Shown here: positions 6,261 to 54,245 of the stretch, in pieces
How positions within the stretch are numbered: the stretch's first letter is position 1
How the letters are laid out: each line of letters starts with the position of its first letter
Source of the DNA: Hexactinellida sp. DTS-2022
Lineage: Eukaryota > Porifera > Hexactinellida
NCBI GenBank assembly: GCA_028753945.1
Contig: JAPNXP010000003.1
Location: 1,488,001 to 1,552,000 of the forward strand
DNA length: 64,000 bases
Direction: 5' to 3'
Notes under the pieces: model-generated
The model's database searches: none
What the model saw: the letters and a program-made list of their open reading frames with translations, nothing else
Told to the model about the DNA's origin: nothing
Made by a program: the position numbers and the translations under genes

Positions 6261-6387
6261 ATATACAAAGTAGCTTTGATGCCAAAATAACAAATGCATA
6301 TAATTCCATTGAAGATTAATTTTCATGATCAATGTTTTTTCTCCCATTTGTATAAATTGCAGTTGAACAAAACCAATTCTAAACGGA

Positions 6388-7131
6388 ATGGAAAAATCCA
6401 GGAAGATAAATTGGACTAAGGAAGAAGAGTGCGCGCTCATTGGTGAAATTGAATCTGCTGGCGACTTATTGAGAGGTTCAGGAAACAGCGCTGACCTCAA
6501 TAAGAAGAAGAAGGAACTGTGGAAAACCATTACAGGCAAAGTAAACGCTGTATATGGAAATAATAGAGGGGTAGAAGACTTAAGAAAGAAATGAAATAAC
6601 CTGAAGTTAGCTTCCAAGTCAAAAGTTGATGCTAGCTTTAGGGAATCTAGAATAACCGGAGGGGGCTCAAACTCCGCTGGGATTGTCGAAGACGAAGATA
6701 TATTAATTTTAGCTGCAGATAGGAGTATAAATAACTCTGATAGAATTAGAGAGATGTTTGAGAACACCCCAGCTTTTATCGGAATCTCAGGTGCTGTCGA
6801 TAATTTCGTACCACCAGCAACAGCAACCAGCAGCGAACAGATTCCTCAGCTAGGTACTGTAGACGATACGTCAATTTTGTATGCTCCCGAAGAATCCAAC
6901 ATTAACGTTAATCGTAATGGGAAGAGAAGTAGGAAGCGAAGACGTGATCCAACAAATTATCTACGTACAACGGAGTCCCAGCAGCAGCCGGAAATGAAGG
7001 TAGCGGACTTACTCCCTTTACAGCAGGAAGTGCTGCTACAACAGATGGCTGTATTCGCAGCACAACTTAAGCTAATTGAAGAGCAGAGGGAGTACTACAG
7101 GCTGAAACGTCAGAAGCTGTTAGAAAAATAA
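6388..7131 (+). pseudogene. Myb/SANT-like (Zeste/NAIF1-type) DNA-binding protein, one nonsense codon
   Basis: One reading frame of 248 codons, broken only by TGA at 6592-6594, where related proteins have a conserved Trp (the context is ...DLRKK, stop, NNLKLASKSK). N-terminal residues ~5-80 form the Myb/SANT-like domain: NWTKEEECALIGEI is helix 1 with the first Trp, then ELWKTITGKVNAVYG, then the K-K-(W)-N-N-L-K recognition-helix motif. The middle is polar and holds a basic cluster (KRSRKRRRDP). The C-terminus (LQQEVLLQQMAVFAAQLK onward) is a predicted coiled coil. This layout matches the Myb-like accessory protein of Harbinger transposons, which in known systems carries the transposase to the nucleus and binds the ends. 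The start at 6388 lies 27 bases after an acceptor-like TTGCAG, so a 5' intron is possible. The single TGA means recent inactivation, or a sequencing error. Confidence 0.82.
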
Positions 7132-7450
7132 TTAAATTAGTTACTAGCTAGACTAGATAGTGTGCAGAAATATAACGATTTTACTTGTATTATGTCTGCC
7201 AAATTAGAGAGTAGCATAAAAGTATACTATTATTATTACGAATCCGAAGAAATTCTTAATTTAGTCTAATACAAAATTACTTAAGCAACCTCCCTAGCTT
7301 GCTTAAAGTTCGTACTTAAGTTCGAACTTAAGTACGAACTAAAATCTTAGTGAATAACAATCTTAGTGAATACGACTTAAGTTCGAACTTAGTACTTAAG
7401 TCTTAAGTTCGAACTTAAGTTCGAACTTAACTACTTAGTGAATACGGCCC
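7132..7450 (+). repeat. 3' flank and right terminal region of the Harbinger-like element
   Basis: About 150 bp of AT-rich 3' sequence follows the Myb-like gene, then subterminal palindromes of the AAGTTCGAACTTAAG type from about 7290 and the terminal CTTAGTGAATACGGCCC. Extra end-like copies (CTTAGTGAATAAC at 7346 and CTTAGTGAATACG at 7362) lie inside the true end. I see no canonical AATAAA. Confidence 0.75.
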
Positions 7451-10400: not shown

Positions 10401-12860
10401 TCTATTTACATTCATTTAAGAGCTTAATATCGTGAAACACCAATTTTGTGTGCAATGACAATCAAAAACTACCAAATTGATTAATTAATTGTTTAAGGAC
10501 TTTTCCAGTTGTTTCTTTTGATGATATGAAGTATTTATAATCAAAAGTGTCCTTACAGTGCCGCTGAAACACCATTACTCAATATATACATTCATTTAAG
10601 AGCCTAATATCGAAAAAAACCAATCTTTGTGTGCAATGAATATCAAAAACTCACAAATTGATAAATTAAAGGTTTAAGTACATTTCCCGTTGTTTCTTTT
10701 GATAATATGAAGTAAGTATCATCAAAGGTGTTCTAACAGTGCCACTGAAACAGCACTCACTCAATTTAAATTAACTTAAGTGCCTAATATCGAGAAACAC
10801 CAATTTTTGTGTGCAATAACAATAAAAAACTCCCAAATTGATAAATTAATGGTTTGAGGACGTTTCAGTTGTTTTTTTTTATTATATGAAGTATTTATCG
10901 TTAAAGGGTCCTAACAGTGCCACTGAAACTCCACTCACTCCAGTTACATTCATTTAAGAGCCTAATATCGAGAAACACCAATTTTTGTGTGCAATGACTG
11001 TCAGAAATTACCAAAATGATAAATGAATGGTCTAAAGACGTTTCCAGTTGTTTCTTTTGATGATATGAAGAATCTATCGTTAACGGGGTCCTAACAGTGC
11101 CACTGAAACATATCTAAATCAATTAACATTCATTTAAGAGCATAATATCGAGAAACACCAATCTTTGTGTGCAATGAATATCAAAAATTCACAAATTGAT
11201 AAATTAATGGTTTAAGTACGTTTCCCGATGTTTCTTTTGATGATATGAAGTAAGTATCATCAAAGGTGTCCTTACAGTGCCACTGAAACACCACTCACTC
11301 AATTTACATTCATTTAATGGCCTAATATCGCGACAAAGCAATTTTTGTGGCAATGACCTTCAAAAAATACAAAAATGATAAATTAATGTTTTCAGCACGT
11401 TTCCAGTTGTTTCCTTTGATGATATGAAGTATTTATCATCAAAGCTGTCCAAACAGTGCCGCTGAAATCCCATTCACTCAATTTACTTTCATTTAAGAGC
11501 TTAATATCGTGAAACACCAATTTTGTGTGCAATGACAGTCAAAAGCTCCCAAATTGATAAATTAATGGTTTAAGGACGTTTCAGTTGTTTTTTTTGATGA
11601 TATGAAGTATTTATCGTTAAAGCGCTCCTAACAGTGCTACTGAAACTCCACTCATTCAATTTACATTCATTGAAGAGAAAATAACGAGAAACAACAATTT
11701 AAGCGTGCAATGACTTTCAAAAATTACCAAAATGATAAATGAATGGTCCAAGGACTTTTCCAGTTGTTTCTTTTGATGATATGAAGTATTTATCGTTAAA
11801 GGGTCCAAACAGTGCCACTGAAACTCCACTCACTCCAGTTACATTCATTTAAGAGCCTAATATCGAGAAAATCCAATTTTTGTGTGCAATGACTGTCAGA
11901 TATTACCAAAATGATAAATGAATGGTCTAAGGACGTTTCCAGTTGTTTCCTTTGATGATATGAAGTAAGTATCATCAAAGGTGTCCTTACAGTGCCACTG
12001 AAACACCACTCACTCAATTTAAATTCATTTAATGTCTTAATATCGCGACAAAGCATTTTTTGTGGCAATGACCTCCAAAAAATACAAAAATGATAATTAA
12101 TGTTTTCAGGACGTTTCCAGTTGTTTCCTTTGATGATATGAAGTATTTATCATCGAAGGTTTCCAAACAGTCCCGCTGAAATCCCACTCACTCAATTTAC
12201 ATTCAGTAAAGAGCTTAATATCGTGAAACACCAATTTTGTGTGCAATGACAGTCAAAAACTACCAAATTGATTAATTAATGGTTTAAGGACGTTTCCAGG
12301 TGTATATTTTGATTATATGAAGTATATAATCAAAAGTGTCCTTACAGTTCTGCTGAAACACCATTACATAATATATACATTCATTTAAGAGCCTAATATC
12401 GAAAAAAACCAATCTTTGTGTGCAATGAATATCAAAAACTCACAAATTGATAAATTATTGGTTTAAGGACGTTTCCTGTTGAATCTTTTTATTATTTGTA
12501 ATATTTATCATCAAAGGTGTTCTAACAGTGCCACTGAAACAGTACTCACTCAATTTACATTAACTTAAGTGCCAAATATCGAGAAACACCAATTTTTGTG
12601 TGCAATAACAATAGAAAACTCCCAAATTGATAAATTAATGGTTTAAGGACTTTTCAGTTGTTTTTTTTGATGATATGAAGTATTTATCGTCAAAGGGTTC
12701 TAACAGTGCCACTGAAACTCCACTCACTCAATTTACATTAATTTAAGAGCCTAATATCGAGAAACACCAATTTTTGTGTGCAATGACTATCAAAGATTAT
12801 CAAAATGATAAATTAATGGTTTATGGACGTTTCCAGTTGTGTATTTTGATGATAAGAAGT
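7451..12860 (+). repeat. 180-bp satellite array, block A (right part)
   Basis: Resumes within the interrupted monomer at CAGTTGTTTCC and continues in the same orientation for about 30 monomers. Part of it is an older segmental copy of the left part: about 3,960-4,480 matches about 7,725-8,300 closely (shared GTGCGCAATGACTATC, GGTCTAAGGAAGTTTCCATT and GAATGCAAAGACTGTCG variants). Block A ends at an orientation switch near 12,860. Confidence 0.96.
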
Positions 12861-12880
12861 ATTACATAAAATAAAAAGAT
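12841..12880. repeat. Satellite orientation switch 1 (A to B), at the monomer dyad
   Basis: The forward monomer reads GTATTTTGATGATAAGAAGT up to about 12,860. The next bases are the reverse complement of the same half of the monomer (ATTACATA..AATAAAAAGATTCAACAGG, compare 13,751-13,782). The left half of the dyad is joined to its own inverse, and the right half (TTATCATCAAAGGTGTCC) is missing at this point. Confidence 0.9.
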
Positions 12881-15829
12881 TCAACAGGAAACGTGCTTAA
12901 AACATAAATTTATCAATTTGGGAGTTTTTGACAGTCATTGCACATAAAGATTTATTTTTCTCGTTATTAGGCTCTTAAATGAATGTAAATTGAGTGTATG
13001 GAGTTTCAGTGGCACTGTTTGGACACTTTTGATGATAAATACTACATATCATCAAAAGAAACAACAGGAAACGTCCTTAAACCAATAATTTATCAATTTG
13101 GGAGTTTTTGAAAGTCATTGCACACAAAGATTGGTTTTTCACGATATTAGGGTCTCAAATGAATGTTACTTGAGTGAATGGTGTTTCAGTGGCACTGTTA
13201 GCACACTTTGATGATAAATTCTACATATCATCACTAGAAACAACAAGAAACGTCCTTTAACCATTAATTTATCAATTTGGGAGTTTTTGACTCACATTGC
13301 ACATAAAAATTTCTTTTTCTCGTTATTAGGCACTTAAATGAATGTAAATTGAGTGACTGGTATTTCAGTGGCACTGTTAGGACACATTTGTTGATAAATA
13401 CTATATATCATCAAAAGATACAACTGGAAACGTCCTTAAACGACAAGTAATAAATTTGAGTGTTTTTGACAGTCACTGAACATAGAAAATTGGTTTTTCT
13501 CGTTATTAGGCTCTTAAATGAATGTAAATTGAGTGACTGGTATTTCAGTGGCACAGTTAGGACTCATTTGTTGATAAATACTATATATCATCATTAGATA
13601 CAACTGGAAACGTCCTTAAACCAATAAGTTATCAATTTGGTAGTTTTTGACAGTCATTGCACACAAAAATTGGTTTTTCACGATATTAGTCTCTCAAATG
13701 AATGTTACTTGAGTGAGTGGTGTTTCAGTGACACTGTTAGCACACGTTTGATGATAAATATTACACATAATAAAAAGATTCAACAGGAAACGTGCTTATA
13801 CCATTAATTTATCAATTTGGGAACAGTCATTGCAAAGAAAATTGGTTTTTCTCGTTATTAGTCACTAAAATGAATGTTACTTGAGTGAGTGGTGTTACAG
13901 TGGCACTGTTAGCACTCTTTTGATGATAAATATTACATATAATAAAAAGATTCAATTGGAAACGGGAATAAACCATTAATTTATCAATTTGGGAGTTTTT
14001 GACAGTCATTTCACATAAAAATTGGTTTTTCTCGTTATTAGGCTCTTGAATGAATGTAAATTGAGTGAATTGTATTTCACTGGCACTGTTGGGACACTTT
14101 TGATGATAAATACTTTATATCATCAAAAGAAACAACAGGAAACGTCCTTAAACAATTAATTTATCAATTTGAGAGTTTTTGCCAGTCATTGCACATAAAA
14201 ATTGGTTTTTCTCGTTATTAGGCTTTTGAATGAATGTAAATTGAGTGAATGGTATTTCACTGGCACTGTTAGGACACATTTGATGATAAATACTATATAT
14301 CATCAAAAGATACAACTGGAAACGTCCTTAAACCACAAGTTATCAATTTGGGAGTTTTTGACACTCATTGCAAATAAAAATTGGTTTTTCTCGTTATTAG
14401 GTTCTTAAATGAAAGTCAATTAAGTGAATGGTGTTTCAGTGGCACTATTAATACACTTTTGGTGATAAATAATTCATTTCATCAAAAGAAACAACTGGAA
14501 ACGTCGGTAAACCATTCATTTATCATTTTGGTAGTTTTTGACAGTCATAGGTCACAAAAATTGGTTTTTCTCGATATCTGGCTCTTAAATGATTGTAAAT
14601 TGAGTGAGTGGTGTTTCAGTGGCACTGTAGGGGCACTTTTGATGATAAACACTACATATCATCAAAAGAAACAACAGGAAACGTCCTTAAACCATTAATT
14701 TATCAATTTCGGAGTTTTTGTTATTCATTGCACATAGAAAATTGGTTTTTCTCGTTATTAGGCTCATAATGAATGTTACTTGAGTGAGTGGTGTTTCAGT
14801 GGCACTGTTAGCACACTTTTAATGATAAATATAACTGAAAATAAAAAGATTCGACAGGAAACGTGCTTATACCATTTATTTATTAATTTGGGTGTTTTTG
14901 ACAGTCATTGCAAATATAAATTGGTTTTTCTCGTTATTAAGCTCTTAAATGAATGTAAATTTAGTGAAGGGTATTTCAGTGGCACTGTTAGGACACATTT
15001 GATGATAAATACTATATATCATCAAAAGATACAACTGGAAACGTCCTTAAACCACAAGTTATAAATTTGAGTGTTTTTGACAGTCACTGAACATAGAAAA
15101 TTGGTTTTTCTCGTTATTAGGCAATAAATGAATGTAAATTGAGTGACTGGTATTTCAGTGGCACTGTAGGGACACTTTTGATGATAAACACTATATATCA
15201 TCAAAAGAAACTACAGGAAACGTCCTTAAACAATTAATTTATCAATTTGAGAGTTTTTGACAGTCATTGCAGATAAAAATTGGTTTTTCTCGTTATTAGG
15301 CACTGAAATGAATGTAAATTGAGTGAATGGAGTTTCAGTGGCACTGTTTGGACACTTTTGATGATAAATACTACATATCATCAAAAGAAACAACAGGAAA
15401 CGTCCTTAATCCAATAATTTATCAATTTGAGAGTTTTTGACAGTCATTGCAAATAAAAATTGGTTTTTCTCGTTATTTGGCTCTTAAATGAAAGTTCATA
15501 GAGTGAATGTTGTTTCAGTGGCACTATTAAGACACTTTTGGAGATAAATAATTCATATCATCAAAAGAAACAATTGGAAACGTCGGTAAACATTCATTTA
15601 TCATTTTGGTAGTTTTTGACAGTCATTGCACCCAAAAATTGGATCTTTCACGATATTAGGCTCTCAAATGAATGTTACTTGAGTGAGTGGTGTTTCAGTG
15701 GCCCTGTTTGCACACTTTTGATGATAAATATTACATATAATAAAAAGAAACAATAGGAAACGCGCTTAAACCATTAATTTATCAAATTGGGAGTTTTTGA
15801 CAGTCAATGCACACAAAAATTGGTTTTTC

Positions 15830-18800
15830 ACAATATTAGGCTCTCAAATGTATGTTACTTGAGTGAGTGGAGTTTCTGTGGCACTGTCAGGAAACCTTTG
15901 ATGATAAATACTTCATATCATCAAAAGAAACAACTGGAAACGTCGGTAAACATTCATTTATCATTTGGTAGTTTTTGACAGTCATTGCAAATAAAAATTG
16001 GTTTTTCTCGTTATTAGGCTCTTAAATGGAAGTTACTTGTGTGAATGGTGTTTGAGTGGCACTATTAATACACTTTTGGTGATAAATAATTCATATCATC
16101 AAAAGAAACAACTGGAAATTCGGTAAACCATTCATTTATCATTTTGGTAGTTTTTGACAGTCATAGGTCACAAAATTGGTTTTTCTCGATATCTGGCTCT
16201 TAAATGATTGTAAATTGAGTGAGTGGTGCTTCAATGGCACTGTAGGGACACTTTTGATGATAAATATAAAATATCATCAAAAGATACAACAGGAAACGTC
16301 CTTAAACCATTAATTTATCAATTTGGGAGTTTTTGAGAGTCATTGGACGGAAAAATTGGTTTTTCTCGATATTAGGCTCTTAAATGAATGTAAATTGAGT
16401 GAATGGTATTTCAGTGGCACTGTTAGCACACCTTTGATGATAAATACTACATATCATCAGATAAAACAATAGGAAACGTGCCTTAACCATTAATTTATCA
16501 ATTTGGGTGTTTTTGACATTCATTGCACATAAAAATTGGTTTTTCCAGATAATAGGCTCTTAAATGAATGGAAATTGAGTGAGTGGTGTTTCTGTGGCAC
16601 TGTTAGAACACCTTTGATGATAAATTATTCAAATCATCAAAAGAAACAACTGGAAACAACGGTAAACCATTCATTTATCATTTTGGTAGTTTTTTTTACA
16701 GTCCTCGCACTCAAAAATTGGATTTTTCACGATATTAGGCTCTCAAATGAATCTTAAAGAGTGAGTGGTGTTTCAGTGGCCCTATTAGCACACTTTTGAT
16801 GATAAATATAAAATATCATCAAAAGAAACAACAGGAAACGTCCTTAAACCATTAATTTATCAATTTGGAAGTTTTTGACATTCATTGCACACAGAAATTC
16901 GTTTTTCCAGATACTAGGCTCAAAAATGAATGTAAATTGAGTGAATGGTGTTTCAGTGGCAGTGTTAGGACACATTTGATGATAAATTCTATAGATCATC
17001 AACAGATACAACTGGTGGAAACGTCCTTAAACTTACAAGTTATCAATTTGGTAGTTTTTGACAGTCATTGCAGACAAAATTGGTTTTTCACGATATTAGG
17101 CTCTCAAATGTATGTTACTTGAGTGAGTGGTGTTTCAGTGGCACTGTTAGAACACCTTTGATGATAAATATTACATATAATAAAAAGAAACAACTGGAAA
17201 CGTGCTTAAAACATTCATTTATCAATTTGGGAGTTTTTGACAGTTATTGCACATAAAAATTGGTTTTTCTCGTTATTAGGCTCTTAAATGGAAGTTACTT
17301 GTGTAAATGATGTTTCAGTGGCACTATTAATACACTTTTGGTGATAAATAATTCATATCATCAAAAGAAACAACTGGAAACGTCGGTAAACCATTCATTT
17401 ATCATTTTGGTAGTTTTTGACAGTCATAGGTCACAAAAATTGGTTTTTCTCAATATCTGGCTCTTAAATGATTGTAAATTGAGTGAGTGGTGCTTCAGTG
17501 GTACTGTAGGGACACTTTTGATGATAAACACTACTTATCATCAAAAGAAACAACAGGAAACGTCCTTAAACAATTAATTTATCAATTTGAGAGTTTTTGA
17601 CAGACATTGCACATAAAAATTGGTTTTTCTCGATATTAGGCACTGAAATGAATGTAAATTGAGTGAATGGAGTTTCAGTGGCACTGTTTGGACACTTTTG
17701 ATGATAAATACTACATATCATCAAAAGAAACAACAGGAAACGTCCTTAATCCAATAATTTATCAATTTGAGAGTTTTTGACAGTCATTGCAAATAAAAAT
17801 TGGTTTTTCTCGTTATTTGGCTCTTAAATGAAAGTTCCTAGAGTGAATGGTGTTTCAGTGGCACTATTAAGACACTTTTGGAGATAAATAATTCATATCA
17901 TCAAAAGAAACAACTGGAAACGTCGGTAAACATTCATTTATCATTTGGTAGTTTTTGACAGTCATTGCACCCAAAAATTGGATCTTTCACGATATTAGGC
18001 TCTCAAATGTATGTTACTTGAGTGAGTGGAGTTTCTGTGGCACTGTCAGGAAACCTTTGATGATAATACTTCATATCATCAAAAGAAACAACTGGAAACG
18101 TCGGTAAACATTCATTTATCATTTGGTAGTTTTTGACAGTCATTGCAAATAAAAATTGGTTTTTCTCGTTATTAGGCTCTTAAATGGAAGTTACTTGTGT
18201 GAATGGTGTTTGAGTGGCACTATTAATACACTTTTGGTGATAAATAATTCATATCATCAAAAGAAACAACTGGAAATTCGGTAAACCATTCATTTATCAT
18301 TTTGGTAGTTTTTGACAGTCATAGGTCACAAAATTGGTTTTTCTCGATATCTGGCTCTTAAATGATTGTAAATTGAGTGAGTGGTGCTTCAATGGCACTG
18401 TAGGGACACTTTTGATGATAAATATAAAATATCATCAAAAGATACAACAGGAAACGTCCTTAAACCATTAATTTATCAATTTGGGAGTTTTTGAGAGTCA
18501 TTGGACGGAAAAATTGGTTTTTCTCGATATTAGGCTCTTAAATGAATGTAAATTGAGTGAATGGTATTTCAGTGGCACTGTTAGCACACCTTTGATGATA
18601 AATACTACATATCATCAGATAAAACAATAGGAAACGTGCCTTAACCATTAATTTATCAATTTGGGTGTTTTTGACATTCATTGCACATAAAAATTGGTTT
18701 TTCCAGATAATAGGCTCTTAAATGAATGGAAATTGAGTGAGTGGTGTTTCTGTGGCACTGTTAGAACACCTTTGATGATAAATTATTCAAATCATCAAAA

Positions 18801-20100
18801 GAAACAACTGGAAACAACGGTAAACCATTCATTTATCATTTTGGTAGTTTTTTTTACAGTCCTCGCACTCAAAAATTGGATTTTTCACGATATTAGGCTC
18901 TCAAATGAATCTTAAAGAGTGAGTGGTGTTTCAGTGGCCCTATTAGCACACTTTTGATGATAAATATAAAATATCATCAAAAGAAACAACAGGAAACGTC
19001 CTTAAACCATTAATTTATCAATTTGGAAGTTTTTGACATTCATTGCACACAGAAATTCGTTTTTCCAGATACTAGGCTCAAAAATGAATGTAAATTGAGT
19101 GAATGGTGTTTCAGTGGCAGTGTTAGGACACATTTGATGATAAATTCTATAGATCATCAACAGATACAACTGGTGGAAACGTCCTTAAACTTACAAGTTA
19201 TCAATTTGGTAGTTTTTGACAGTCATTGCAGACAAAATTGGTTTTTCACGATATTAGGCTCTCAAATGTATGTTACTTGAGTGAGTGGTGTTTCAGTGGC
19301 ACTGTTAGAACACCTTTGATGATAAATATTACATATAATAAAAAGAAACAACTGGAAACGTGCTTAAAACATTCATTTATCAATTTGGGAGTTTTTGACA
19401 GTTATTGCACATAAAAATTGGTTTTTCTCGTTATTAGGCTCTTAAATGGAAGTTACTTGTGTAAATGATGTTTCAGTGGCACTATTAATACACTTTTGGT
19501 GATAAATAATTCATATCATCAAAAGAAACAACTGGAAACGTCGGTAAACCATTCATTTATCATTTTGGTAGTTTTTGACAGTCATAGGTCACAAAAATTG
19601 GTTTTTCTCAATATCTGGCTCTTAAATGATTGTAAATTGAGTGAGTGGTGCTTCAGTGGCACTGTAGGGACACTTTTGATGATAAACACTACTTATCATC
19701 AAAAGAAACAACAGGAAACGTCCTTAAACAATTAATTTATCAATTTGAGAGTTTTTGACAGACATTGCACATAAAAATTGGTTTTTCTCGATATTAGGCA
19801 CTGAAATGAATGTAAATTGAGTGAATGGAGTTTCAGTGGCACTGTTTGGACACTTTTGATGATAAATACTACATATCATCAAAAGAAACAACAGGAAACG
19901 TCCTTAATCCAATAATTTATCAATTTGAGAGTTTTTGACAGTCATTGCAAATAAAAATTGGTTTTTCTCGTTATTTGGCACTTAAATGAAAGTTCCTAGA
20001 GTGAATGGTGTTTCAGTGGCACTATTAAGACACTTTTGGAGATAAATAATTCATATCATCAAAAGAAACAATTGGAAACGTCGGTAAACATTCATTTATC
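15830..20100 (-). repeat. Higher-order repeat, 2,158-bp unit, two copies
   Basis: A 12-monomer block is duplicated in tandem: copy 1 about 15,840-18,000, copy 2 about 18,000-20,100. Landmarks shift by exactly 2,158 bp (16,536 to 18,694; 16,865 to 19,023; 17,068 to 19,226; 17,338 to 19,496), including rare variants such as GAAACAACGGTAAACC and TTTTTTTTACAGTCCTCGC. A partly homologous 13-monomer version begins before copy 1 (15,301 corresponds to 17,641). Confidence 0.93.
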
Positions 20101-21000
20101 ATTTTGGTAGTTTTTGACAGTCATAGGTCACAAAATTGGTTTTTCTCGATATCTGGCTCTTAAATGATTGTAAATTGAGTGAGTGGTGCTTCAGTGGCAC
20201 TGTAGGGACACTTTTGATGATAAATATAAAATATCATCAAAAGAAACAACAGGAAACGTCCTTAAACCATTAATTTATCAATTTGGGAGTTTTTGACAGT
20301 CATTGGACGGAAAAATTGGTTTTTCTCGATATTAGGCTCTTAAATGAATGGAAATTGAGTGAGTGGTGTTTCTTTGGCACTGTTAGAACACCTTTGATGA
20401 TAAATTATTCAAATCATCAAAAGAAACAACTGGAAACAACGGTAAACCATTCATTTATCATTTTGGTAGTTTTTTTTACAGTCCTTGCACTCAAAAATTG
20501 GATTTTTCACGATATTAGGCTCTCAAATGAATGTTAAAGAGTGAGTGGTGTTTCAGTGGCCCTGTTAGCACACATTTGATGATAAATATAAAATATCATT
20601 AAAAGAAACAACAGGAAACGTCCTTAAACCATTAATTTATCAATTTGGGAGTTTTTGACATTCATTGCACACAGAAATTCGTTTTTCCAGATACTAGGCT
20701 CAAAAATGAATGTAAATTGAGTGAGTGGTGTTTAAGTGGCACTGTCCAGACACCTTTGATGATAAATACTTCATATCATCAAAAGAAACCAATGGAAACG
20801 TTGGTAAACCATTCATTTATCATTTTGGTGGTTTTTGACAGACATAGGTCACAAAAATTGGTTTTTCTCGATATTATACTATAAATGAATGTAAATTGAG
20901 TGAGTGGTGTTTCAGTGGCACTGTTAGCACACTTTTGATGATAAATATTACATATAATATCAAGAAACAACTGGAAACGTGCTTAAACCATTAATTTATC

Positions 21001-32400: not shown

Positions 32401-35400
32401 AGTGGCACTGTTAGGATACATTTGATGTTAAATACTTCATATCATCAAAAGAAACAACTGGAAACGTCGGTAAACCATTCATTTATCATTTTGGTATATT
32501 GTGACAGAAATTGCACTTAAAAATTGGTTTTTCTGGTTATTAGGCTCTTAAATGAATGTAAATTGAGTGAATGGTGTTTCAGTGGCACTGTTAGGACACA
32601 TTTGATGATAAATACTATATATCAAAAAAAGATACAACCGGAAACGTCCATAAACCACTAAGTTATGAATTTGGGAGTTTTGGATTGTGATTGCACACAA
32701 AAATTGGTTTTTCCAGATACTAGGCTCAAAAATGGATGTAAATTGTTTGAGTGGTGTTTCAGTGGCACTGTTAGCACACTTTTGATGATAAATATTACAT
32801 ATAATATTAAGAAACAACAGGAAACGTGCTTAAACCATTAATTTATCAATTTGGAGTTTTTGACAGTCATAGGTCCCAAAAATTGGTTTTTCTCGATAAA
32901 ATACTCTTAAATGAATGTAAATTGAGCTGAAGTGGTGTTTCAGAGGCAAAGTTAGGAAACTTTTGATGATAAATAATACATATAATAAAAAGAAACAACA
33001 GGAAACGTCCTTAAACCAATAATTTATCAATTTGGGAGTTTTTGACAGTCATTGCTCTCAAAAATTGGTTTTCCAGATATTAGGCTCTTAAATGAATGTA
33101 AATTGAGTGAGTGGTGTTTCAGTGGCACTGTCAGGACACCTTTGATGATAAATACTTCATATCATCGAAAGAAACAACTGAAAAATTCGGTATACCATTC
33201 ATTTATCATTTTGGTAGTTTTTGCCAGACATTGCAGTTAAAAATTGGTTTTTCTCGATATTATACTCTTAAATGAATGTAAATTGAGTGATTTGAGTTTA
33301 AGTGGCACTGTTAGGACTCCTTTGCTGATTTATACTACATATCATCAAAAGAAACAACAGGAAACGTCCTTAAACCAATAATTTATAAATTTGGGAGTTT
33401 TTGACAGTCATCGGACTCAAAAATTGGTTTTTCCAGATATTAGGCTCTTAAATGAGTGTAAATTTAGGGTGTGGTGTTTAAGTGGCTTTGTCAGGACACC
33501 TTTGATGATAAATACTTCATATCATCAAAAGAAACTAATGGAAACGTCGGTAACCATTCATTTATCATTTTGGTAGTTTTTGACAGACATAGGTCACAAA
33601 AATTGGTTTTTCTCGATATTATACTCTTAAATGAATGTAAATTGAGTGAGTTGAGTTTCAGTGGCACTGTTAGGACTCTTTTGATGATTTATACTACATA
33701 TCATGAAAAGAAACAACAGGAAACGTCCTTAAACCAATAATTTATCAATTTGGGAGTTTTTGACAGTCATTGCTCTCAAAAATTGGTTTTTCCAGATATT
33801 AGGCACTTAAATGAATGTAAATTGAGTGAGTGGTGTTTCAGTGGCACTGTTTGGACAACTTTGATGATAAATACTTCATATCATCGAAAGAAACTACTGG
33901 AAACGTCGGTAAACCATTCATTTATCATTTTGGTAGTTTTTGCCAGTCATTACTCTTAAAAATTGGTTTTTCTCGATATTATACTCTTAAATGAATGTAA
34001 ATTGAGTGATTTGAGTTTAAGTGGCACTGTTAGGACTTTTTTGATGATTTAGACTACATATCATCAAAAGAAACAACAGGAAACGTCGTTAAACCAATAA
34101 TTTATCAATTTGGGAGTTTTTGACAGTGAGTGAACTCAAAAATTGGTTTTTCCAGATATTAGGCTCTTAAATGAATGTAAATTGAGTGAGTGGTGTTTAA
34201 GTGGCACTGTCCGGACACCTTTGATGATAAATACTTCATATCATCAAAAGAAACTAATGGAAACGTTGGTAAACCATTCATTTATCATTTTGGTGTTTTT
34301 TGACAGACATAGGTCACAAAAATTGGTTTTTCTCGATATTTTACTATTAAATGAATGTAAATTGAGCTGAAGTGGTGTTTCATGGGCACTGTAGGAAACT
34401 TTTGATGATAAATAATACATATAATCAAAAGAAACAACAGGAAACGTCCTTAAACCAATAATTTATCAATTTGGGTGTTTTTGACAGTCATTGCTCTCAA
34501 AAATTGGTTTTTCCAGATATTAGGCTCTTAAATGAATGTAAATTGAGTGAGTGGTGTTTCAGTGGCATTGTCAGGACACCTTTGATGATAAATACTTCAT
34601 ATCATCGAAAGAAACAACTGGAAACGTCGGTAAACGATTCATTTTGGTAGTTTTTGACAGTCATTGCACACAAAAATTGGTTTTTCTGGTCATTAGGCTC
34701 TTAAATGAATGTAAATTGAGTGAATTGTGTTTCAGTGGCACTGTTAGGACACATTTAATGATAAATACTTCATATCATCAAAAGAAACCAATGGAAACGT
34801 TGGTAAACCATTCATTTATCATTTTGTTCGTTTTTGACAGACATAGGTCACAAAAATTGGTTTTTCTCGATATTATACTATTAAATGAATGTTACTTGAG
34901 TGAGTGGTGTTTCAGTGGCAATGTTAGCACACCTTTGATGATAGATATTATATATAATATTAAGAAACAACAGGAAACGTGCTTAAACCATTCATTTATC
35001 ATTTTAATAGTTTTTGACAGTCATTGCACTTAAAAATTGGTTTTTCTCGTTATTAGGCACTCAAATGAATGTTACTTCAGTGAGTGGTGTTTCAGTGGAT
35101 ACTGTTAGCACACTTTTTATGATAAATATTACATATAATATTAAGAAACAACAGGAAACGTGCTTAAACCATTAATTTATCAATTTGGGAGTTTTTGACA
35201 GTCATTGCACATAAAAATTTGTTTTTCTCGTTATTAGGCTCAAAAATGAATGTAAGGTGAGTGAGTGGTGTTTCAGTGGCACTGTCAGGACACATTTGAT
35301 GATAAATACTTCATATCATCAAAAGAAACAACCGGAAAAGTCGGGAAACGATTCATTTATCATTTTGCTTGTTTTTGACAGTCATTGCACACAAAAAGTG

Positions 35401-38400
35401 GTTTTTCACGTTATTAGGCTCTCAAATGAATATTACTTCAGTGAGTGGTGTTTCAGTGGATACTGTTAGCACACTTTTGATGATAAATATTACATATAAT
35501 ATTAAGAAACAACAGGAAACGTCCTTAAACCATTAATTTATCAATTTGGGAGTTTTTGACAGTCATTGCTCTCAAAAATTGGTTTTTCCAGATATTAGGA
35601 TCTTAAATGAATGTAAATTGAGTGAGTGGTGTTTCAGTGGCACTGTCTGGACACCTTTGATGATAAATACTTCACATCATCAAAAGAAACCAATGGAAAC
35701 GTTGGTAAACCATAAATTTATCAATTTGGGATTTTTTGACAGTCATTGCACATAAAAATTGTTTTTCTCGTTATTAGGCTCTTAAATGAATGTAAATTGA
35801 GTGAATGGTGTTTCAGTGGCACTGTTAGGACTCTTTTGATGATAAATACTACATGTCATCAAAAGAAACAACAGGATACGTCCTAAAACCAATAATTTAT
35901 CAATTTGGGAGTTTTTGACAGTCATTGCACTCAAAAATTGGTTTTTCTGGTTATTAGGCACTTAAATGAATGTAAATTGAGTAATGGTGTTTTAGTGGCA
36001 CTGTTAGGATACATTTGATGTTAAATACTTCATATCATCAAAAGAAACAACTGGAAACGTCGGTAAACCATTCATTTATCATTTTGGTATATTGTGACAG
36101 AAATTGCACTTAAAAATTGGTTTTTCTGGTTATTAGGCTCTTAAATGAATGTAAATTGAGTGAATGGTGTTTCAGTGGCACTGTTAGGACACATTTGATG
36201 ATAAATACTATATATCAAAAAAAGATACAACCGGAAACGTCCATAAACCACTAAGTTATGAATTTGGGAGTTTTGGATTGTGATTGCACACAAAAATTGG
36301 TTTTTCCAGATACTAGGCTCAAAAATGGATGTAAATTGTTTGAGTGGTGTTTCAGTGGCACTGTTAGCACACTTTTGATGATAAATATTACATATAATAT
36401 TAAGAAACAACAGGAAACGTGCTTAAACCATTAATTTATCAATTTGGAGTTTTTGACAGTCATAGGTCCCAAAAATTGGTTTTTCTCGATAAAATACTCT
36501 TAAATGAATGTAAATTGAGCTGAAGTGGTGTTTCAGAGGCAAAGTTAGGAAACTTTTGATGATAAATAATACATATAATAAAAAGAAACAACAGGAAACG
36601 TCCTTAAACCAATAATTTATCAATTTGGGAGTTTTTGACAGTCATTGCTCTCAAAAATTGGTTTTCCAGATATTAGGCTCTTAAATGAATGTAAATTGAG
36701 TGAGTGGTGTTTCAGTGGCACTGTCAGGACACCTTTGATGATAAATACTTCATATCATCGAAAGAAACAACTGAAAAATTCGGTATACCATTCATTTATC
36801 ATTTTGGTAGTTTTTGCCAGACATTGCAGTTAAAAATTGGTTTTTCTCGATATTATACTCTTAAATGAATGTAAATTGAGTGATTTGAGTTTAAGTGGCA
36901 CTGTTAGGACTCCTTTGCTGATTTATACTACATATCATCAAAAGAAACAACAGGAAACGTCCTTAAACCAATAATTTTTAAATTTGGGAGTTTTTGACAG
37001 TCATCGGACTCAAAAATTGGTTTTTCCAGATATTAGGCTCTTAAATGAGTGTAAATTTAGGGTGTGGTGTTTAAGTGGCTTTGTCAGGACACCTTTGATG
37101 ATAAATACTTCATATCATCAAAAGAAACTAATGGAAACGTCGGTAACCATTCATTTATCATTTTGGTAGTTTTTGACAGACATAGGTCACAAAAATTGGT
37201 TTTTCTCGATATTATACTCTTAAATGGATGTAAATTGAGTGAGTTGAGTTTCAGTGGCACTGTTAGGACTCTTTTGATGATTTATACTACATATCATGAA
37301 AAGAAACAACAGGAAACGTCCTTAAACCAATAATTTATCAATTTGGGAGTTTTTGACAGTCATTGCTCTCAAAAATTGGTTTTTCCAGATATTAGGCACT
37401 TAAATGAATGTAAATTGAGTGAGTGGTGTTTCAGTGGCACTGTTTGGACAACTTTGATGATAAATACTTCATATCATCGAAAGAAACTACTGGAAACGTC
37501 GGTAAACCATTCATTTATCATTTTGGTAGTTTTTGCCAGTCATTACTCTTAAAAATTGGTTTTTCTCGATATTATACTCTTAAATGAATGTAAATTGAGT
37601 GATTTGAGTTTAAGTGGCACTGTTAGGACTCCTTTGCTGATTTATACTACATATCATCAAAAGAAACAACAGGAAACGTCCTTAAACCAATAATTTATCA
37701 ATTTGGGATTTTTTGACAGTCATTGCACATAAAAATTGTTTTTCTCGTTATTAGGCTCTTAAATGAATGTAAATTGAGTGAATGGTGTTTCAGTGGCACT
37801 GTTAGGACTCTTTTGATGATAAATACTACATGTCATCAAAAGAAACAACAGGATACGTCCTAAAACCAATAATTTATCAATTTGGGAGTTTTTGACAGTC
37901 ATTGCACTCAAAAATTGGTTTTTCTGGTTATTAGGCACTTAAATGAATGTAAATTGAGTAATGGTGTTTTAGTGGCACTGTTAGGATACATTTGATGTTA
38001 AATACTTCATATCATCAAAAGAAACAACTGGAAACGTCGGTAAACCATTCATTTATCATTTTGGTATATTGTGACAGAAATTGCACTTAAAAATTGGTTT
38101 TTCTGGTTATTAGGCTCTTAAATGAATGTAAATTGAGTGAATGGTGTTTCAGTGGCACTGTTAGGACACATTTGATGATAAATACTATATATCAAAAAAA
38201 GATACAACCGGAAACGTCCATAAACCACTAAGTTATGAATTTGGGAGTTTTGGATTGTGATTGCACACAAAAATTGGTTTTTCCAGATACTAGGCTCAAA
38301 AATGGATGTAAATTGTTTGAGTGGTGTTTCAGTGGCACTGTTAGCACACTTTTGATGATAAATATTACATATAATATTAAGAAACAACAGGAAACGTGCT

Positions 38401-40110
38401 TAAACCATTAATTTATCAATTTGGAGTTTTTGACAGTCATAGGTCCCAAAAATTGGTTTTTCTCGATAAAATACTCTTAAATGAATGTAAATTGAGCTGA
38501 AGTGGTGTTTCAGAGGCAAAGTTAGGAAACTTTTGATGATAAATAATACATATAATAAAAAGAAACAACAGGAAACGTCCTTAAACCAATAATTTATCAA
38601 TTTGGGAGTTTTTGACAGTCATTGCTCTCAAAAATTGGTTTTCCAGATATTAGGCTCTTAAATGAATGTAAATTGAGTGAGTGGTGTTTCAGTGGCACTG
38701 TCAGGACACCTTTGATGATAAATACTTCATATCATCGAAAGAAACAACTGAAAAATTCGGTATACCATTCATTTATCATTTTGGTAGTTTTTGCCAGACA
38801 TTGCAGTTAAAAATTGGTTTTTCTCGATATTATACTCTTAAATGAATGTAAATTGAGTGATTTGAGTTTAAGTGGCACTGTTAGGACTCCTTTGCTGATT
38901 TATACTACATATCATCAAAAGAAACAACAGGAAACGTCCTTAAACCAATAATTTATAAATTTGGGAGTTTTTGACAGTCATCGGACTCAAAAATTGGTTT
39001 TTCCAGATATTAGGCTCTTAAATGAGTGTAAATTTAGGGTGTGGTGTTTAAGTGGCTTTGTCAGGACACCTTTGATGATAAATACTTCATATCATCAAAA
39101 GAAACTAATGGAAACGTCGGTAACCATTCATTTATCATTTTGGTAGTTTTTGACAGACATAGGTCACAAAAATTGGTTTTTCTCGATATTATACTCTTAA
39201 ATGAATGTAAATTGAGTGAGTTGAGTTTCAGTGGCACTGTTAGGACTCTTTTGATGATTTATACTACATATCATGAAAAGAAACAACAGGAAACGTCCTT
39301 AAACCAATAATTTATCAATTTGGGAGTTTTTGACAGTCATTGCTCTCAAAAATTGGTTTTTCCAGATATTAGGCACTTAAATGAATGTAAATTGAGTGAG
39401 TGGTGTTTCAGTGGCACTGTTTGGACAACTTTGATGATAAATACTTCATATCATCGAAAGAAACTACTGGAAACGTCGGTAAACCATTCATTTATCATTT
39501 TGGTAGTTTTTGCCAGTCATTACTCTTAAAAATTGGTTTTTCTCGATATTATACTCTTAAATGAATGTAAATTGAGTGATTTGAGTTTAAGTGGCACTGT
39601 TAGGACTTTTTTGATGATTTAGACTACATATCATCAAAAGAAACAACAGGAAACGTCGTTAAACCAATAATTTATCAATTTGGGAGTTTTTGACAGTGAG
39701 TGAACTCAAAAATTGGTTTTTCCAGATATTAGGCTCTTAAATGAATGTAAATTGAGTGAGTGGTGTTTAAGTGGCACTGTCCGGACACCTTTGATGATAA
39801 ATACTTCATATCATCAAAAGAAACTAATGGAAACGTTGGTAAACCATTCATTTATCATTTTGGTGTTTTTTGACAGACATAGGTCACAAAAATTGGTTTT
39901 TCTCGATATTTTACTATTAAATGAATGTAAATTGAGCTGAAGTGGTGTTTCATGGGCACTGTAGGAAACTTTTGATGATAAATAATACATATAATCAAAA
40001 GAAACAACAGGAAACGTCCTTAAACCAATAATTTATCAATTTGGGTGTTTTTGACAGTCATTGCTCTCAAAAATTGGTTTTTCCAGATATTAGGCTCTTA
40101 AATGAATGTA
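28970..40110 (-). repeat. Higher-order repeat, 5,570-bp unit, two copies
   Basis: A 31-monomer block duplicated in tandem: about 28,970-34,540 and 34,541-40,110. At least fifteen landmarks shift by exactly 5,570 bp (28,981 to 34,551; 30,571 to 36,141; 31,773 to 37,343; 34,143 to 39,713). Divergence is a few substitutions only, for example T at 29,828 against G at 35,398. The unit itself contains the older 1,977-bp duplication. Confidence 0.95.
30570..33960 (-). repeat. Higher-order repeat, 1,977-bp unit nested in the 5,570-bp unit
   Basis: An 11-monomer block repeats with offset 1,977 (30,571 to 32,548; 31,075 to 33,052; 31,494 to 33,471; 31,773 to 33,750) and diverges after about 34,040. 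The pair is copied again inside the second 5,570-bp unit (36,141 and 38,118). Confidence 0.94.
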
Positions 40111-43100
40111 AATTGAGTGAGTGGTGTTTCAGTGGCACTGTCAGGACACCTTTGATGATAAATACTTCATATCATCGAAAGAAACAACTGGAAACTTCGG
40201 TAAACCATTCATTTATCATTTTGGTAGTTTTTGCCAGACATTGCTGTTAAAAATTGGTTTTTCTAGATATTATACTCTTAAATGAATGTAAATTGAGTAA
40301 TTTGATTTTAAGTGGCACTGTTAGGACTCTTTTGATGATTTATACTACATATCATCAAAAGAAGCAACAGGAAACGTCCTTAAACCAATAAATTATCAAT
40401 TTGGGAGTTTTTGACAGTCATTGGACTCAAAAATTGGTTTTTCAGGATATTAGGCTCTTAAATGAATGTAAATTGAGTGTGTGGTGTTTAAGTGGCACTG
40501 TCAGGATACCTTTGATGATAAATACTTCATATCATCAAAAGAAACTAATGGAAACGTCGGTAACCATTCATTTATCATTTTGGTAGTTTTTGACAGACAT
40601 AGGTCACAAAAATTGGTTTTTCTCGATATTATACTCTTAAATGAATGTAAATTGAGTGAGTTGAGTTTCAGTGGCACAGTTAGGACTCTTTTGATGATTT
40701 ATACTACATATCATCAAAAGAAACAACAGGAAACGTCCTTAAACCAATAATTTATCAATTTTGGAATTTTTGACAGTCATTGCACACAAAAATTGGTTTT
40801 TCCAGATACTAGGCTCAAAAATGAATGTAAATTGAGAGAGTGGTGTTTCAGTGGCACTGTCAGGATACCTTTGATGATAAATACTTCATGTCATCAAAAG
40901 AAACAACTGGAAACGTCGGTAAACGATTCATTTATCATTTTGGTTTTTTTACAGTCATTGCACACAAAAATTGGTTTTTCACGATATTAGGCTCTCAAAT
41001 GAATGTTACTTGAGTGAGTGGTGTTTCAGTGGCACTGTTAGCACACTTTTGATGATAAATACTTCATATCAAAAAAAGATACAACCGGAAACGTCCATAA
41101 ACCACTAAGTTATGAATTTGGGAGTTTTGGATTGTGATTGCACACAAAAATTGGTTTTTCCAGATACTAGGCTCAAAAATGGATGTAAATTGTTTGAGTG
41201 GTGTTTCAGTGGCACTGTTAGCACACTTTTGATGATAAATATTACATATAATATTAAGAAACAACAGGAAACGTGCTTAAACCATTAATTTATCAATTTG
41301 GAGTTTTTGACAGTCATAGGTCCCAAAAATTGGTTTTTCTCGATAAAATACTCTTAAATGAATGTAAATTGAGCTGAAGTGGTGTTTCAGAGGCAAAGTT
41401 AGGAAACTTTTGATGATAAATAATACATATAATAAAAAGAAACAACAGGAAACGTCCTTAAACCAATAATTTATCAATTTGGGAGTTTTTGACAGTCATT
41501 GCTCTCAAAAATTGGTTTTCCAGATATTAGGCTCTTAAATGAATGTAAATTGAGTGAGTGGTGTTTCAGTGGCACTGTCAGGACACCTTTGATGATAAAT
41601 ACTTCATATCATCGAAAGAAACAACTGAAAAATTCGGTATACCATTCATTTATCATTTTGGTAGTTTTTGCCAGACATTGCAGTTAAAAATTGGTTTTTC
41701 TCGATATTATACTCTTAAATGAATGTAAATTGAGTGATTTGAGTTTAAGTGGCACTGTTAGGACTCCTTTGCTGATTTATACTACATATCATCAAAAGAA
41801 ACAACAGGAAACGTCCTTAAACCAATAATTTATAAATTTGGGAGTTTTTGACAGTCATCGGACTCAAAAATTGGTTTTTCCAGATATTAGGCTCTTAAAT
41901 GAGTGTAAATTTAGGGTGTGGTGTTTAAGTGGCTTTGTCAGGACACCTTTGATGATAAATACTTCATATCATCAAAAGAAACTAATGGAAACGTCGGTAA
42001 CCATTCATTTATCATTTTGGTAGTTTTTGACAGACATAGGTCACAAAAATTGGTTTTTCTCGATATTATACTCTTAAATGAATGTAAATTGAGTGAGTTG
42101 AGTTTCAGTGGCACTGTTAGGACTCTTTTGATGATTTATACTACATATCATGAAAAGAAACAACAGGAAACGTCCTTAAACCAATAATTTATCAATTTGG
42201 GAGTTTTTGACAGTCATTGCTCTCAAAAATTGGTTTTTCCAGATATTAGGCACTTAAATGAATGTAAATTGAGTGAGTGGTGTTTCAGTGGCACTGTTTG
42301 GACAACTTTGATGATAAATACTTCATATCATCGAAAGAAACTACTGGAAACGTCGGTAAACCATTCATTTATCATTTTGGTAGTTTTTGCCAGTCATTAC
42401 TCTTAAAAATTGGTTTTTCTCGATATTATACTCTTAAATGAATGTAAATTGAGTGATTTGAGTTTAAGTGGCACTGTTAGGACTTTTTTGATGATTTAGA
42501 CTACATATCATCAAAAGAAACAACAGGAAACGTCGTTAAACCAATAATTTATCAATTTGGGAGTTTTTGACAGTGAGTGAACTCAAAAATTGGTTTTTCC
42601 AGATATTAGGCTCTTAAATGAATGTAAATTGAGTGAGTGGTGTTTAAGTGGCACTGTCCGGACACCTTTGATGATAAATACTTCATATCATCAAAAGAAA
42701 CTAATGGAAACGTTGGTAAACCATTCATTTATCATTTTGGTGTTTTTTGACAGACATAGGTCACAAAAATTGGTTTTTCTCGATATTTTACTATTAAATG
42801 AATGTAAATTGAGCTGAAGTGGTGTTTCATGGGCACTGTAGGAAACTTTTGATGATAAATAATACATATAATCAAAAGAAACAACAGGAAACGTCCTTAA
42901 ACCAATAATTTATCAATTTGGGTGTTTTTGACAGTCATTGCTCTCAAAAATTGGTTTTTCCAGATATTAGGCTCTTAAATGAATGTAAATTGAGTGAGTG
43001 GTGTTTCAGTGGCACTGTCAGGACACCTTTGATGATAAATACTTCATATCATCGAAAGAAACAACTGGAAACTTCGGTAAACCATTCATTTATCATTTTG

Positions 43101-43940
43101 GTAGTTTTTGCCAGACATTGCTGTTAAAAATTGGTTTTTCTAGATATTATACTCTTAAATGAATGTAAATTGAGTAATTTGATTTTAAGTGGCACTGTTA
43201 GGACTCTTTTGATGATTTATACTACATATCATCAAAAGAAGCAACAGGAAACGTCCTTAAACCAATAAATTATCAATTTGGGAGTTTTTGACAGTCATTG
43301 GACTCAAAAATTGGTTTTTCAGGATATTAGGCTCTTAAATGAATGTAAATTGAGTGTGTGGTGTTTAAGTGGCACTGTCAGGATACCTTTGATGATAAAT
43401 ACTTCATATCATCAAAAGAAACTAATGGAAACGTCGGTAACCATTCATTTATCATTTTGGTAGTTTTTGACAGACATAGGTCACAAAAATTGGTTTTTCT
43501 CGATATTATACTCTTAAATGAATGTAAATTGAGTGAGTTGAGTTTCAGTGGCACAGTTAGGACTCTTTTGATGATTTATACTACATATCATCAAAAGAAA
43601 CAACAGGAAACGTCCTTAAACCAATAATTTATCAATTTTGGAATTTTTGACAGTCATTGCACACAAAAATTGGTTTTTCCAGATACTAGGCTCAAAAATG
43701 AATGTAAATTGAGAGAGTGGTGTTTCAGTGGCACTGTCAGGATACCTTTGATGATAAATACTTCATGTCATCAAAAGAAACAACTGGAAACGTCGGTAAA
43801 CGATTCATTTATCATTTTGGTTTTTTTACAGTCATTGCACACAAAAATTGGTTTTTCACGATATTAGGCTCTCAAATGAATGTTACTTGAGTGAGTGGTG
43901 TTTCAGTGGCACTGTTAGCACACTTTTGATGATAAATACT
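38190..43940 (-). repeat. Higher-order repeat, 2,877-bp unit, two copies
   Basis: A 16-monomer block: about 38,190-41,066 and 41,067-43,943. Landmarks shift by 2,877 bp (38,400 to 41,277; 39,320 to 42,197; 40,041 to 42,918; 40,793 to 43,670). The first copy overlaps the end of the second 5,570-bp unit, so this duplication is later than the 5,570-bp one. Confidence 0.94.
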
Positions 43941-44101
43941 TCATATCATCAAAAGAAACAACTGGAAACGTCGGTAAACGATTCATTTATCATTTTGGTT
44001 TTTTTTACAGTCATTGCACACAAAAATTGGTTTTTCACGATATTAGGCTCTCAAATGAATGTTACTTGAGTGAGTGGTGTTTCAGTGGCACTGTTAGCAC
44101 A

Positions 44102-44130
44102 CTTTTGATGATAAATATTTATCGTCAAAG
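44102..44130. repeat. Satellite orientation switch 2 (B to C), near-perfect palindrome
   Basis: Inverted satellite ends with CTTTTGATGATAAATATT and forward satellite begins at once with TATTTATCGTCAAAGGTGTCC. The sequence across the junction is a palindrome with a single mismatched pair, made of the right half of the monomer dyad joined to its inverse. It is the reciprocal of the product at switch 1. Confidence 0.92.
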
Positions 44131-54029: not shown

Positions 54030-54245
54030 TAAATATGATGCCAAGTCATCATAAATGGCGCCTAAACCGCAACTATGAGAATCTCAAAAACCATCCCAAT
54101 GGATTCGCCATGACTTTTTACCCCACTTATATCGAAATTGTAACTTTCAATAAAGAGTCCAACCCTCGAGTGAAAATTATAAACTGGCCTCTCTTTTTAT
54201 TTGTGATTTCGGTGAATTGCCAGTCTGTGTATTAAGTAGTCTATG
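54030..54245 (-). repeat. Right long terminal inverted repeat of the P-like element
   Basis: Inverse of 50,672-50,885. The inner boundary is near TAAATATGATGCCAAGTCAT and the outer end is AAGTAGTCTATG, followed directly by the target duplication GTGCAAT and the resumed satellite. Confidence 0.9.

What the first reader, a model, noticed from the sequence alone, without database searches (positions are those of the whole stretch)
12841..44130. Reciprocal satellite inversion with both breakpoints in the monomer dyad
The array changes orientation only twice. At ~12,860 the left half of the monomer dyad is fused to its own inverse; at ~44,116 the right half is fused to its inverse. These are the two products expected from one inversion of ~31.26 kb whose ends both lie in the short hairpin (12-bp stem, 9-nt loop) present in each unit. 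In an array with about 290 dyads, two breaks at the same intra-monomer position suggest that the dyad itself is broken or drives template switching.
Basis: partly seen in the sequence, partly recalled or inferred. Interest (0 to 1): 0.78.

Follow-up and report, generated by a model that had tools for sequence, protein, structure and literature searches.

The report
Satellite array flipping at fixed sites
A 180-base satellite repeat in an unnamed eukaryote's genome changes direction again and again, mostly at the same two short spots inside the repeat, one of them a small hairpin-like sequence; the two flips noticed here belong to that pattern, but they are not shown to come from one inversion.

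Summary
The window (G000:C12:1488001-1552000) is a ~180-bp satellite that changes orientation twice, at 12,862|12,863 and 44,115|44,116, both inside the monomer's dyad. The 232 kb of satellite examined holds 15 switches, 13 without a duplicated block. Of 8 found by orientation alone outside the window, 3 lie strictly in the dyad (4 by a wider window) and 3 on one TTAA; random joins put 4-7% in the dyad. One of the 8 came from a blind fetch made after the clustering was seen. So the dyad is a recurrent switch site, but not the only one.

'One reciprocal inversion' is not established. Left-half and right-half fusion follows automatically once both breaks lie in the dyad. The two axes do match exactly (190/190), yet matched ends are no commoner than chance, and the inverted block is a separate young subfamily: 173 of 173 monomers have their nearest relative inside it. 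Junctions are unrelated in sequence, unlike Tribolium's homogenised inversion sites. The stem shows no covariation. Most likely: recurrent single strand-switches at two intramonomer sites; mechanism unproven.

The parts
1..12862 (+). Forward satellite block C (part of C12:1479502-1500862), interrupted by an insertion at 5662-7449
   Evidence: 103 near-full monomers of block C, best relatives outside C: A 63, B 36, D 2, E 2
12841..12880 (.). Junction J1, forward-to-inverse inside the dyad (forward to 97, inverse from 93; about 4 bp TATT shared by both sides, read by eye)
   Evidence: also found by genome-wide pattern
12863..44115 (-). Inverse satellite block D, 31,253 bp, 173 near-full monomers, young separate subfamily (mean best-relative identity 0.990 inside, 0.887 outside)
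44100..44135 (.). Junction J2, inverse-to-forward inside the dyad (inverse to 97, forward from 95; about 2 bp TA shared, read by eye), near-palindromic
44116..50669 (+). Forward satellite block E, first part
54246..57429 (+). Forward satellite block E, second part, after the P-like element

Best explanation
The two switches are members of a class of orientation switches in this satellite that arise one at a time, recurrently, at two preferred places inside the monomer: the imperfect dyad (positions 78-109) and a TTAA at 56-59. Shown: the switches, their positions, the symmetry (a forward copy is left and an inverse copy entered at nearly the same monomer position), and the lack of detectable shared ancestry between junctions. 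Inferred: a break or fork stall at these sites is healed by joining to, or template-switching onto, the opposite strand of a nearby copy, helped by a few to about a dozen bases of inverted homology. The inverse block D then expanded on its own into a young subfamily. Whether J1 and J2 come from one event or two is left open.
For: Of 8 switches found by orientation only and outside the window, 3 (strict) or 4 (76-118) lie in the dyad and 3 on the TTAA at 54-60, against 4.2%, 7.2% and 0.3% in 600 simulated joins; 5 of 8 leave and re-enter within 5 positions against 6.3% (P 5e-5); three in any one 7-bp window was reached in 0 of 20,000 random draws. A 10-kb fetch of the next stretch, made after the clustering was seen and with no switch known there, held one new switch, C12:1669110, in the dyad. 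Flanks of same-polarity junctions are no more alike (0.75-0.88) than unrelated satellite, except for one tandem-duplicated block, so the positions recur in unrelated contexts. Palindromy alone does not explain the TTAA class: the consensus has 12 four-base palindromes, and the TTAA at 56 is intact in 56% of monomers while others reach 86%. Adjacent switches are not axis-matched beyond chance.
Against: Small numbers (8 clean cases). One clean switch, C11:3986780 (170|36), lies at neither site, and C12:1629279 (115|100) only touches the dyad and follows a forward stub of 146 bases (its copy at 1636705 follows a longer forward stretch). Arms that mirror each other, expected of a fresh fold-back, stand out over ~540 bases at 1 of 13 junctions (1416755, 0.89), with a weaker sign at one more (11391387). 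No covariation in the stem, and the right arm falls in the least conserved tenth of the monomer. Most dyad junctions share only a few bases, off the dyad's exact axis. The TTAA site was recognised after seeing the data.
Confidence: 0.55

Rival explanations
1. One base-conserving inversion of 31.25 kb: two dyads broken in the loop, the piece between them re-joined backwards, followed by expansion of new monomers inside the inverted piece. It does not exclude the dyad being a recurrent site.
For: The junction axes agree exactly: forward end plus inverse start is 190 at J1, and inverse end plus forward start minus 2 is 190 at J2, as a cut without loss or gain requires. Among the six other near-dyad junctions 2 of 15 pairs agree (values), so chance gives about 13%.
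Against: Block D is unlike both flanks: 173 of 173 nearest relatives inside D; best outside relatives B 145, A 10, G 6, E 5, M 4, K 2, C 1. Re-uniting D's first half-monomer with E's gives a monomer whose best relative is worse than 99% of mismatched halves; re-uniting C's with D's last half is uninformative (P 0.37). Four other inverted blocks have unmatched axes, one of them with its middle not fetched.
Confidence: 0.3
2. Insertion: D is satellite that arose elsewhere (for example as an excised circle) and was inserted backwards into a forward C-E array at a dyad.
For: The first two full monomers of E have their best relatives in blocks B and C rather than E, and E's first half-monomer is closest to A and C monomers at 0.96; D is a self-contained subfamily.
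Against: The C-end plus E-start monomer is no better than random halves (P 0.43). It needs both the donor cut and the target cut in a dyad.
Confidence: 0.1
3. Assembly joins: the switches are chimeras made in reads or by the assembler.
For: No reads could be examined. A 2,000-base stretch of C12 recurs letter for letter, reversed, on C11, which could be a recent duplication or a duplicated piece of assembly.
Against: Fold-back chimeras would leave mirrored arms; J1 and J2 arms are 0.82 and 0.84 alike, as unrelated satellite is. A pair of junctions exists in two tandem copies that have since diverged (flanks 0.90-0.99), so those are old. Switches share monomer positions across two contigs.
Confidence: 0.08
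4. The TTAA class comes from TTAA-specific transposon cleavage (piggyBac-like), re-joined backwards; the dyad class has another cause. An addition to, not a replacement of, the main reading.
For: Junction sequences keep TTAA at 1416755, 1630550 and C11:2576653. A 716-bp insertion at C11:3984197-3984912 lies at the same TTAA, flanked by TTAA and with inverted ends alike at 12 of 14.
Against: The consensus has two other TTAA sites, at 48 and 158 (intact in 43% and 78%), and none of the 13 switches is there. 1658217 reads TCAA. One insertion is one case. That piggyBac elements use TTAA is recalled, not tested; no transposase was sought.
Confidence: 0.1

Closest known systems
Macro-dyad symmetries of Tribolium satellite arrays (PMC13081366; abstract and passages seen)
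   Same: Satellite arrays split into multi-kilobase subarrays of opposite orientation, with switch points at preferred places in the repeat.
   Different: There the inversion sites are a few sequences present in thousands of copies (98-99% alike for INV_1a and INV_1b). Here 13 junctions are mutually unrelated but share two intramonomer positions, so the position recurs, not the sequence. The interleaved second satellite of Tribolium was not seen in the fetched arrays.
Fold-back inversions primed by single-strand hairpins in yeast (PMC7467729; abstract and passages seen)
   Same: Inverted junctions at short inverted repeats, one class with loops under 15 nt; stems as short as 4 bp, with a hotspot of 15 bp.
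   Different: Fold-back copying makes mirror-image arms (my inference from the mechanism); here only 1 of 13 junctions keeps clearly mirrored arms over ~540 bases.
[quoted passage not shown] abstract and passages seen)
   Same: [quoted passage not shown] left and right ends can form separately and be unmatched.
   Different: ODIRA junctions prefer repeats spanning 40-80 bp. The monomer has such a one (8 bp, 41-48 with 96-103) and no junction has its axis; the dyad spans about 30 bp.

Membership tests
Tribolium-type macro-dyad satellite arrays | Multi-kilobase subarrays of opposite orientation within one satellite | tested here: met
Tribolium-type macro-dyad satellite arrays | Inversion sites are highly conserved copies of a few sequences | tested here: not met
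   Flanks of same-polarity junctions 0.75-0.88 alike except one duplicated block
Tribolium-type macro-dyad satellite arrays | Direct and inverted subarrays tend to equal length | not tested
   Blocks range from about 1.3 to 63 kb; no test was run
Single two-break inversion | Both ends of the inverted block share one axis (no gain or loss) | tested here: met
   190 and 190 for J1/J2; but 1 exact match in 8 adjacent pairs equals the permuted mean of 1.07
Single two-break inversion | Inverted block belongs to the flanking array when turned back | tested here: not met
   173 of 173 nearest relatives inside D; best outside mostly block B; half-monomer rejoining gives no support. Later expansion could hide it
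Hairpin-primed fold-back inversion | Junction at a short inverted repeat with a short loop | tested here: met
   Dyad class; not met by C11:3986780
Hairpin-primed fold-back inversion | Arms on the two sides are mirror copies | tested here: not met
   Self arm identity 0.77-0.86 for 14 of 15 junctions, 0.89 at 1416755; local signs at 1416755 and 11391387. Age could hide it
ODIRA | Inverted repeats spanning 40-80 bp preferred | tested here: not met
   Axes; inverted repeats
ODIRA | Amplified segment contains a replication origin | not testable with these tools
   No replication data

The most novel reading that the evidence does not exclude
The satellite monomer carries its own strand-switch sites: the dyad and the TTAA at 56-59 are recurrent points at which arrays reverse direction by independent events, so the repeat unit itself sets where its array can flip, and long-range array orientation is an evolving product of two short sequences in each unit.
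Probability: 0.45. Interest if true: 0.7.

Novelty: new variant of a known kind. Interest (0 to 1): 0.5.

Why it matters
Why satellite arrays change direction, and whether short dyads in satellite repeats cause breakage, is open. Here one array family gives a countable series of apparently independent switches with base-level positions, so the idea that an intramonomer dyad drives switching becomes a counting test on any long-read genome. A passage of the 2026 Tribolium paper says macro-dyad arrays had so far been documented only in that genus; this would be a case elsewhere, if the organism (not identified) is not a Tribolium, and with a different signature.

Tried and rejected
Stem selection: 10 core dyad pairs in 914 distinct monomers gave 98 double changes (40 of them paired) against 86.8 expected; slid controls gave 84-119: no signal. 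Fold-back origin of J1 and J2: 0-2 shared rare variants per monomer pair in the first eight offsets. Rejoining half-monomers to choose between inversion and insertion: uninformative or against. Same-orientation phase jumps as a second test of dyad fragility: 6 of 12 distinct contexts touch the dyad, but several are copies and some jumps are long, so nothing is claimed. Palindromic anchor patterns for other axes: none for GGAAACGTC..GACGTTTCC and GTGCAATGAC..GTCATTGCAC; 9 places for the shorter GGAAACG..CGTTTCC, none satellite by sight. For the dyad, CGTTTCC..GGAAACG gave 11 places, 3 of them satellite by sight, J1 among them; two inverse-to-forward patterns gave one each, 1479501 and J2. These patterns allow no mismatch, so absence is weak. 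Control satellite: 345 of 345 hits of the neighbouring 168-bp satellite (C12:1559354-1617311) are on one strand although its unit holds an 8-bp palindrome; one array proves little. Same-orientation blocks are not closer relatives: 0.375 of nearest outside relatives in blocks A-E are on the same strand. The organism was not identified.

Literature: (listings, judged by title and start of abstract, open-access library only); none listed appeared to describe recurrent switching at fixed places in a monomer with unrelated junction sequences. Three papers were opened, in abstract and passages only.
Full report
WHAT IS THERE. The window is G000:C12:1488001-1552000 of an unnamed assembly of 112.4 Mb in 18 contigs. 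Most of it is a ~180-bp satellite: arrays at 1-12,863, 12,844-44,117, 44,102-50,669 and 54,246-57,429. I built a consensus from 300 sampled full-length copies among 977 hits in a 264-kb stretch, closed it to 180 bases, and aligned everything to it with a Viterbi path that can run on either strand and pays to jump. The consensus dyad is positions 78-109, with 10 core pairs (80-89 with 99-108) round a 9-base loop (90-98). Inside the window there are two switches: J1 at 12,862|12,863 (forward to 97, inverse from 93) and J2 at 44,115|44,116 (inverse to 97, forward from 95). Both are in the dyad loop.

HOW GOOD THE MAPPING IS. In 600 artificial junctions made from real satellite pieces at random points, all 600 were recovered, with a position error of 0 at the median and 3 bp at the 90th percentile. 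Random joins put both ends in 76-112 in 4.2%, in 76-118 in 7.2%, in 54-60 in 0.3%, and within 5 positions of each other in 6.3%.

OTHER SWITCHES. The satellite run totals 231,988 bases with 15 switches (loci L001-L008, with no switch, and L037 are not in it). Last position before and first after: C12:1416755 (+55|-59), 1479501 (-79|+110), 1500862 = J1, 1532115 = J2, 1629279 (+115|-100), 1630550 (-60|+56), 1636705 and 1637976 (copies of the last two), 1658217 (+56|-59), 1669110 (-91|+87); C11:2576653 (-60|+56), 3986780 (-170|+36), 11391387 (+79|-108), 11454278 (-88|+89), 11473177 (+86|-90). Dropped before counting: the 2 copies, the window pair itself, and the 3 located by palindromic patterns (11391387 and 11473177; 2576653), which would favour palindromic positions. 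That leaves 8 found by orientation only: strictly in the dyad 3 (1479501, 11454278, 1669110), touching it 1 (1629279), on the TTAA at 56-59 3 (1416755, 1630550, 1658217), elsewhere 1 (3986780). A further TTAA match, C11:6297870, lies in 2,000 bases identical to C12 sequence and is not counted.

STATISTICS. Dyad strict 3 of 8, P 0.0036; 76-118, 4 of 8, P 0.0015; if any 43-bp stretch could have been called the site, P 0.018. Symmetry within 5 positions 5 of 8, P 5e-5. Three in any one 7-bp stretch: 0 of 20,000 random draws. The TTAA site was noticed from the data, so only this last scan value should be used for it. One switch came near a blind test: after the dyad clustering had been seen, the next 10 kb of C12 were fetched with no switch known there, and held one, in the dyad.

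INDEPENDENCE OF JUNCTIONS. Up to 540 bases on each side of every junction were compared with every same-polarity junction, straight and mirrored. Only the duplicated block stands out (0.90-0.99 in the straight comparison); the other pairs are 0.75-0.88, as the satellite generally is (region means 0.80-0.85). So the same position recurs in unrelated contexts. Homogenisation could have erased common ancestry, so independence is likely rather than proved.

IS IT ONE INVERSION? The left-half and right-half fusions carry no information once both breaks are in the dyad. What does is the axis: a cut without gain or loss requires equal sums at both ends, and J1 and J2 give 190 and 190. The six other near-dyad junctions give 187, 187, 176, 176, 175 and 215, of which 2 of 15 pairs agree, so chance is about 13%. 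Over 8 adjacent pairs of switches (copies left out), 1 matches exactly, 3 within 1 and 4 within 3; shuffles give means of 1.07, 1.61 and 2.14 (P 0.70, 0.20, 0.12). Inverted blocks C12:1416756-1479501 (114/187), 1629280-1630550 (215/114), 1658218-1669110 (115/176) and C11:11391388-11454278 (187/175; its middle was not fetched, only sampled by patterns) are unmatched. Inversion pairs are not shown to be the rule, but J1/J2 is the one exact match.

BLOCK D. Blocks on C12: A 1388001-1416755, B to 1479501 (inverse), C to 1500862, D to 1532115 (inverse), E to 1545429, F round 1629000-1631000, G to 1658217, H to 1661000; K, M and N are the C11 pieces. All 173 near-full monomers of D have their closest relative inside D (mean identity 0.990), against 0.887 for the best outside; the outside relatives are B 145, A 10, G 6, E 5, M 4, K 2, C 1. 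B is the largest block, and for the edge monomers listed a few B monomers account for many of the hits. Seven of the last eight monomers before J2 are identical to monomers further in. D is a young expansion; its present monomers cannot show what was there when the switch arose. Rejoining the broken monomers: C-end with D-end P 0.37, D-start with E-start 0.99 (worse than mismatched halves), C-end with E-start 0.43.

THE DYAD. Columns conserved: left arm 0.922, loop 0.865, right arm 0.872, all 0.896; positions 100-109 are the least conserved tenth (0.825). There is no excess of compensatory change. The dyad is imperfect in most units (54 of 286 window monomers have all 10 core pairs) and not visibly maintained. 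It is still the longest inverted repeat of the consensus (10 bp; next 8 and 7).

MECHANISM. Shown: position and symmetry. Inferred: breakage or stalling at the dyad, then joining to, or copying from, the opposite strand of a copy at nearly the same monomer position. On-axis junctions (1479501, 11391387) have the whole arm as homology; J1 and J2 share about 4 and 2 bases (read by eye), closer to joining of two ends broken at the dyad. The TTAA class keeps TTAA at three of four junctions; a 716-bp insertion uses the same TTAA as its target, which raises, but does not show, a TTAA-specific cleavage. Mirror arms, the mark of a fresh fold-back, stand out over the whole arm only at 1416755 (0.89 over 533 columns; one monomer pair 168/177 alike with 9 shared rare variants; rank 5 of 1,185, itself counted). 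11391387 has weaker local signs (mirror partners at ranks 3, 11, 8 and 9 for offsets 0, 1, 5, 6).

KNOWN SYSTEMS. Tribolium macro-dyad arrays are the closest, but their switch points are homogenised copies. Yeast fold-back inversions and ODIRA are the closest mechanisms: both make inverted junctions at short inverted repeats; neither's full signature is met here.

VERDICT. Real, non-random, and more general than the finding said; the single-inversion story is possible but not needed. Eight clean cases are few, reads were not available, and only about a quarter of the estimated satellite was examined.

Noticed in passing
window 50670-54245: P-like transposon inside the satellite: 28-bp matching inverted ends, 7-bp duplication GTGCAAT at 50663-50669 and 54246-54252 (read). 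The reading frame is in pieces; the first piece matches the THAP domain at E 4.2e-13, the other four pieces searched match no Pfam family at E 0.001.
   Followed up: partly
window 5662-7449: 1,788-bp insertion in the forward array with inverted ends (GGCCGTATTCACTAAG), TTAAGTTCGAACTTAA-like palindromic stretches and, at 6057-6262, a 24-bp tandem repeat.
   Followed up: no
C11:6296501-6298500 (L037) and C12:1629934-1631933: 2,000 bases identical letter for letter between two contigs in opposite orientation, including a TTAA switch: very recent inter-chromosome duplication or duplicated assembly.
   Followed up: partly
C12:1629280-1637976: A 1.3-kb inverted block bounded by a near-dyad and a TTAA switch exists in two tandem copies about 7.4 kb apart, now partly diverged.
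   Followed up: partly
C12:1559354-1617311: A second satellite of about 168 bp, 345 hits all on one strand, begins 7 kb right of the window.
   Followed up: partly
C11:3984197-3984912 (L031), C11:11455362-11460077 (L032, L033), C12:1453009-1453184 (L015): Of 8 insertions looked at in the satellite, one lies at the switch-site TTAA with TTAA duplicated and two in the dyad. Whether insertions prefer these sites beyond chance was not tested.
   Followed up: no
C12:1391712-1392330 and 1395738-1396355: Two ~618-bp elements beginning CATAGGCGCCGATC at the same monomer position about 4 kb apart (both ends checked for the first only), probably one insertion copied with the array.
   Followed up: no
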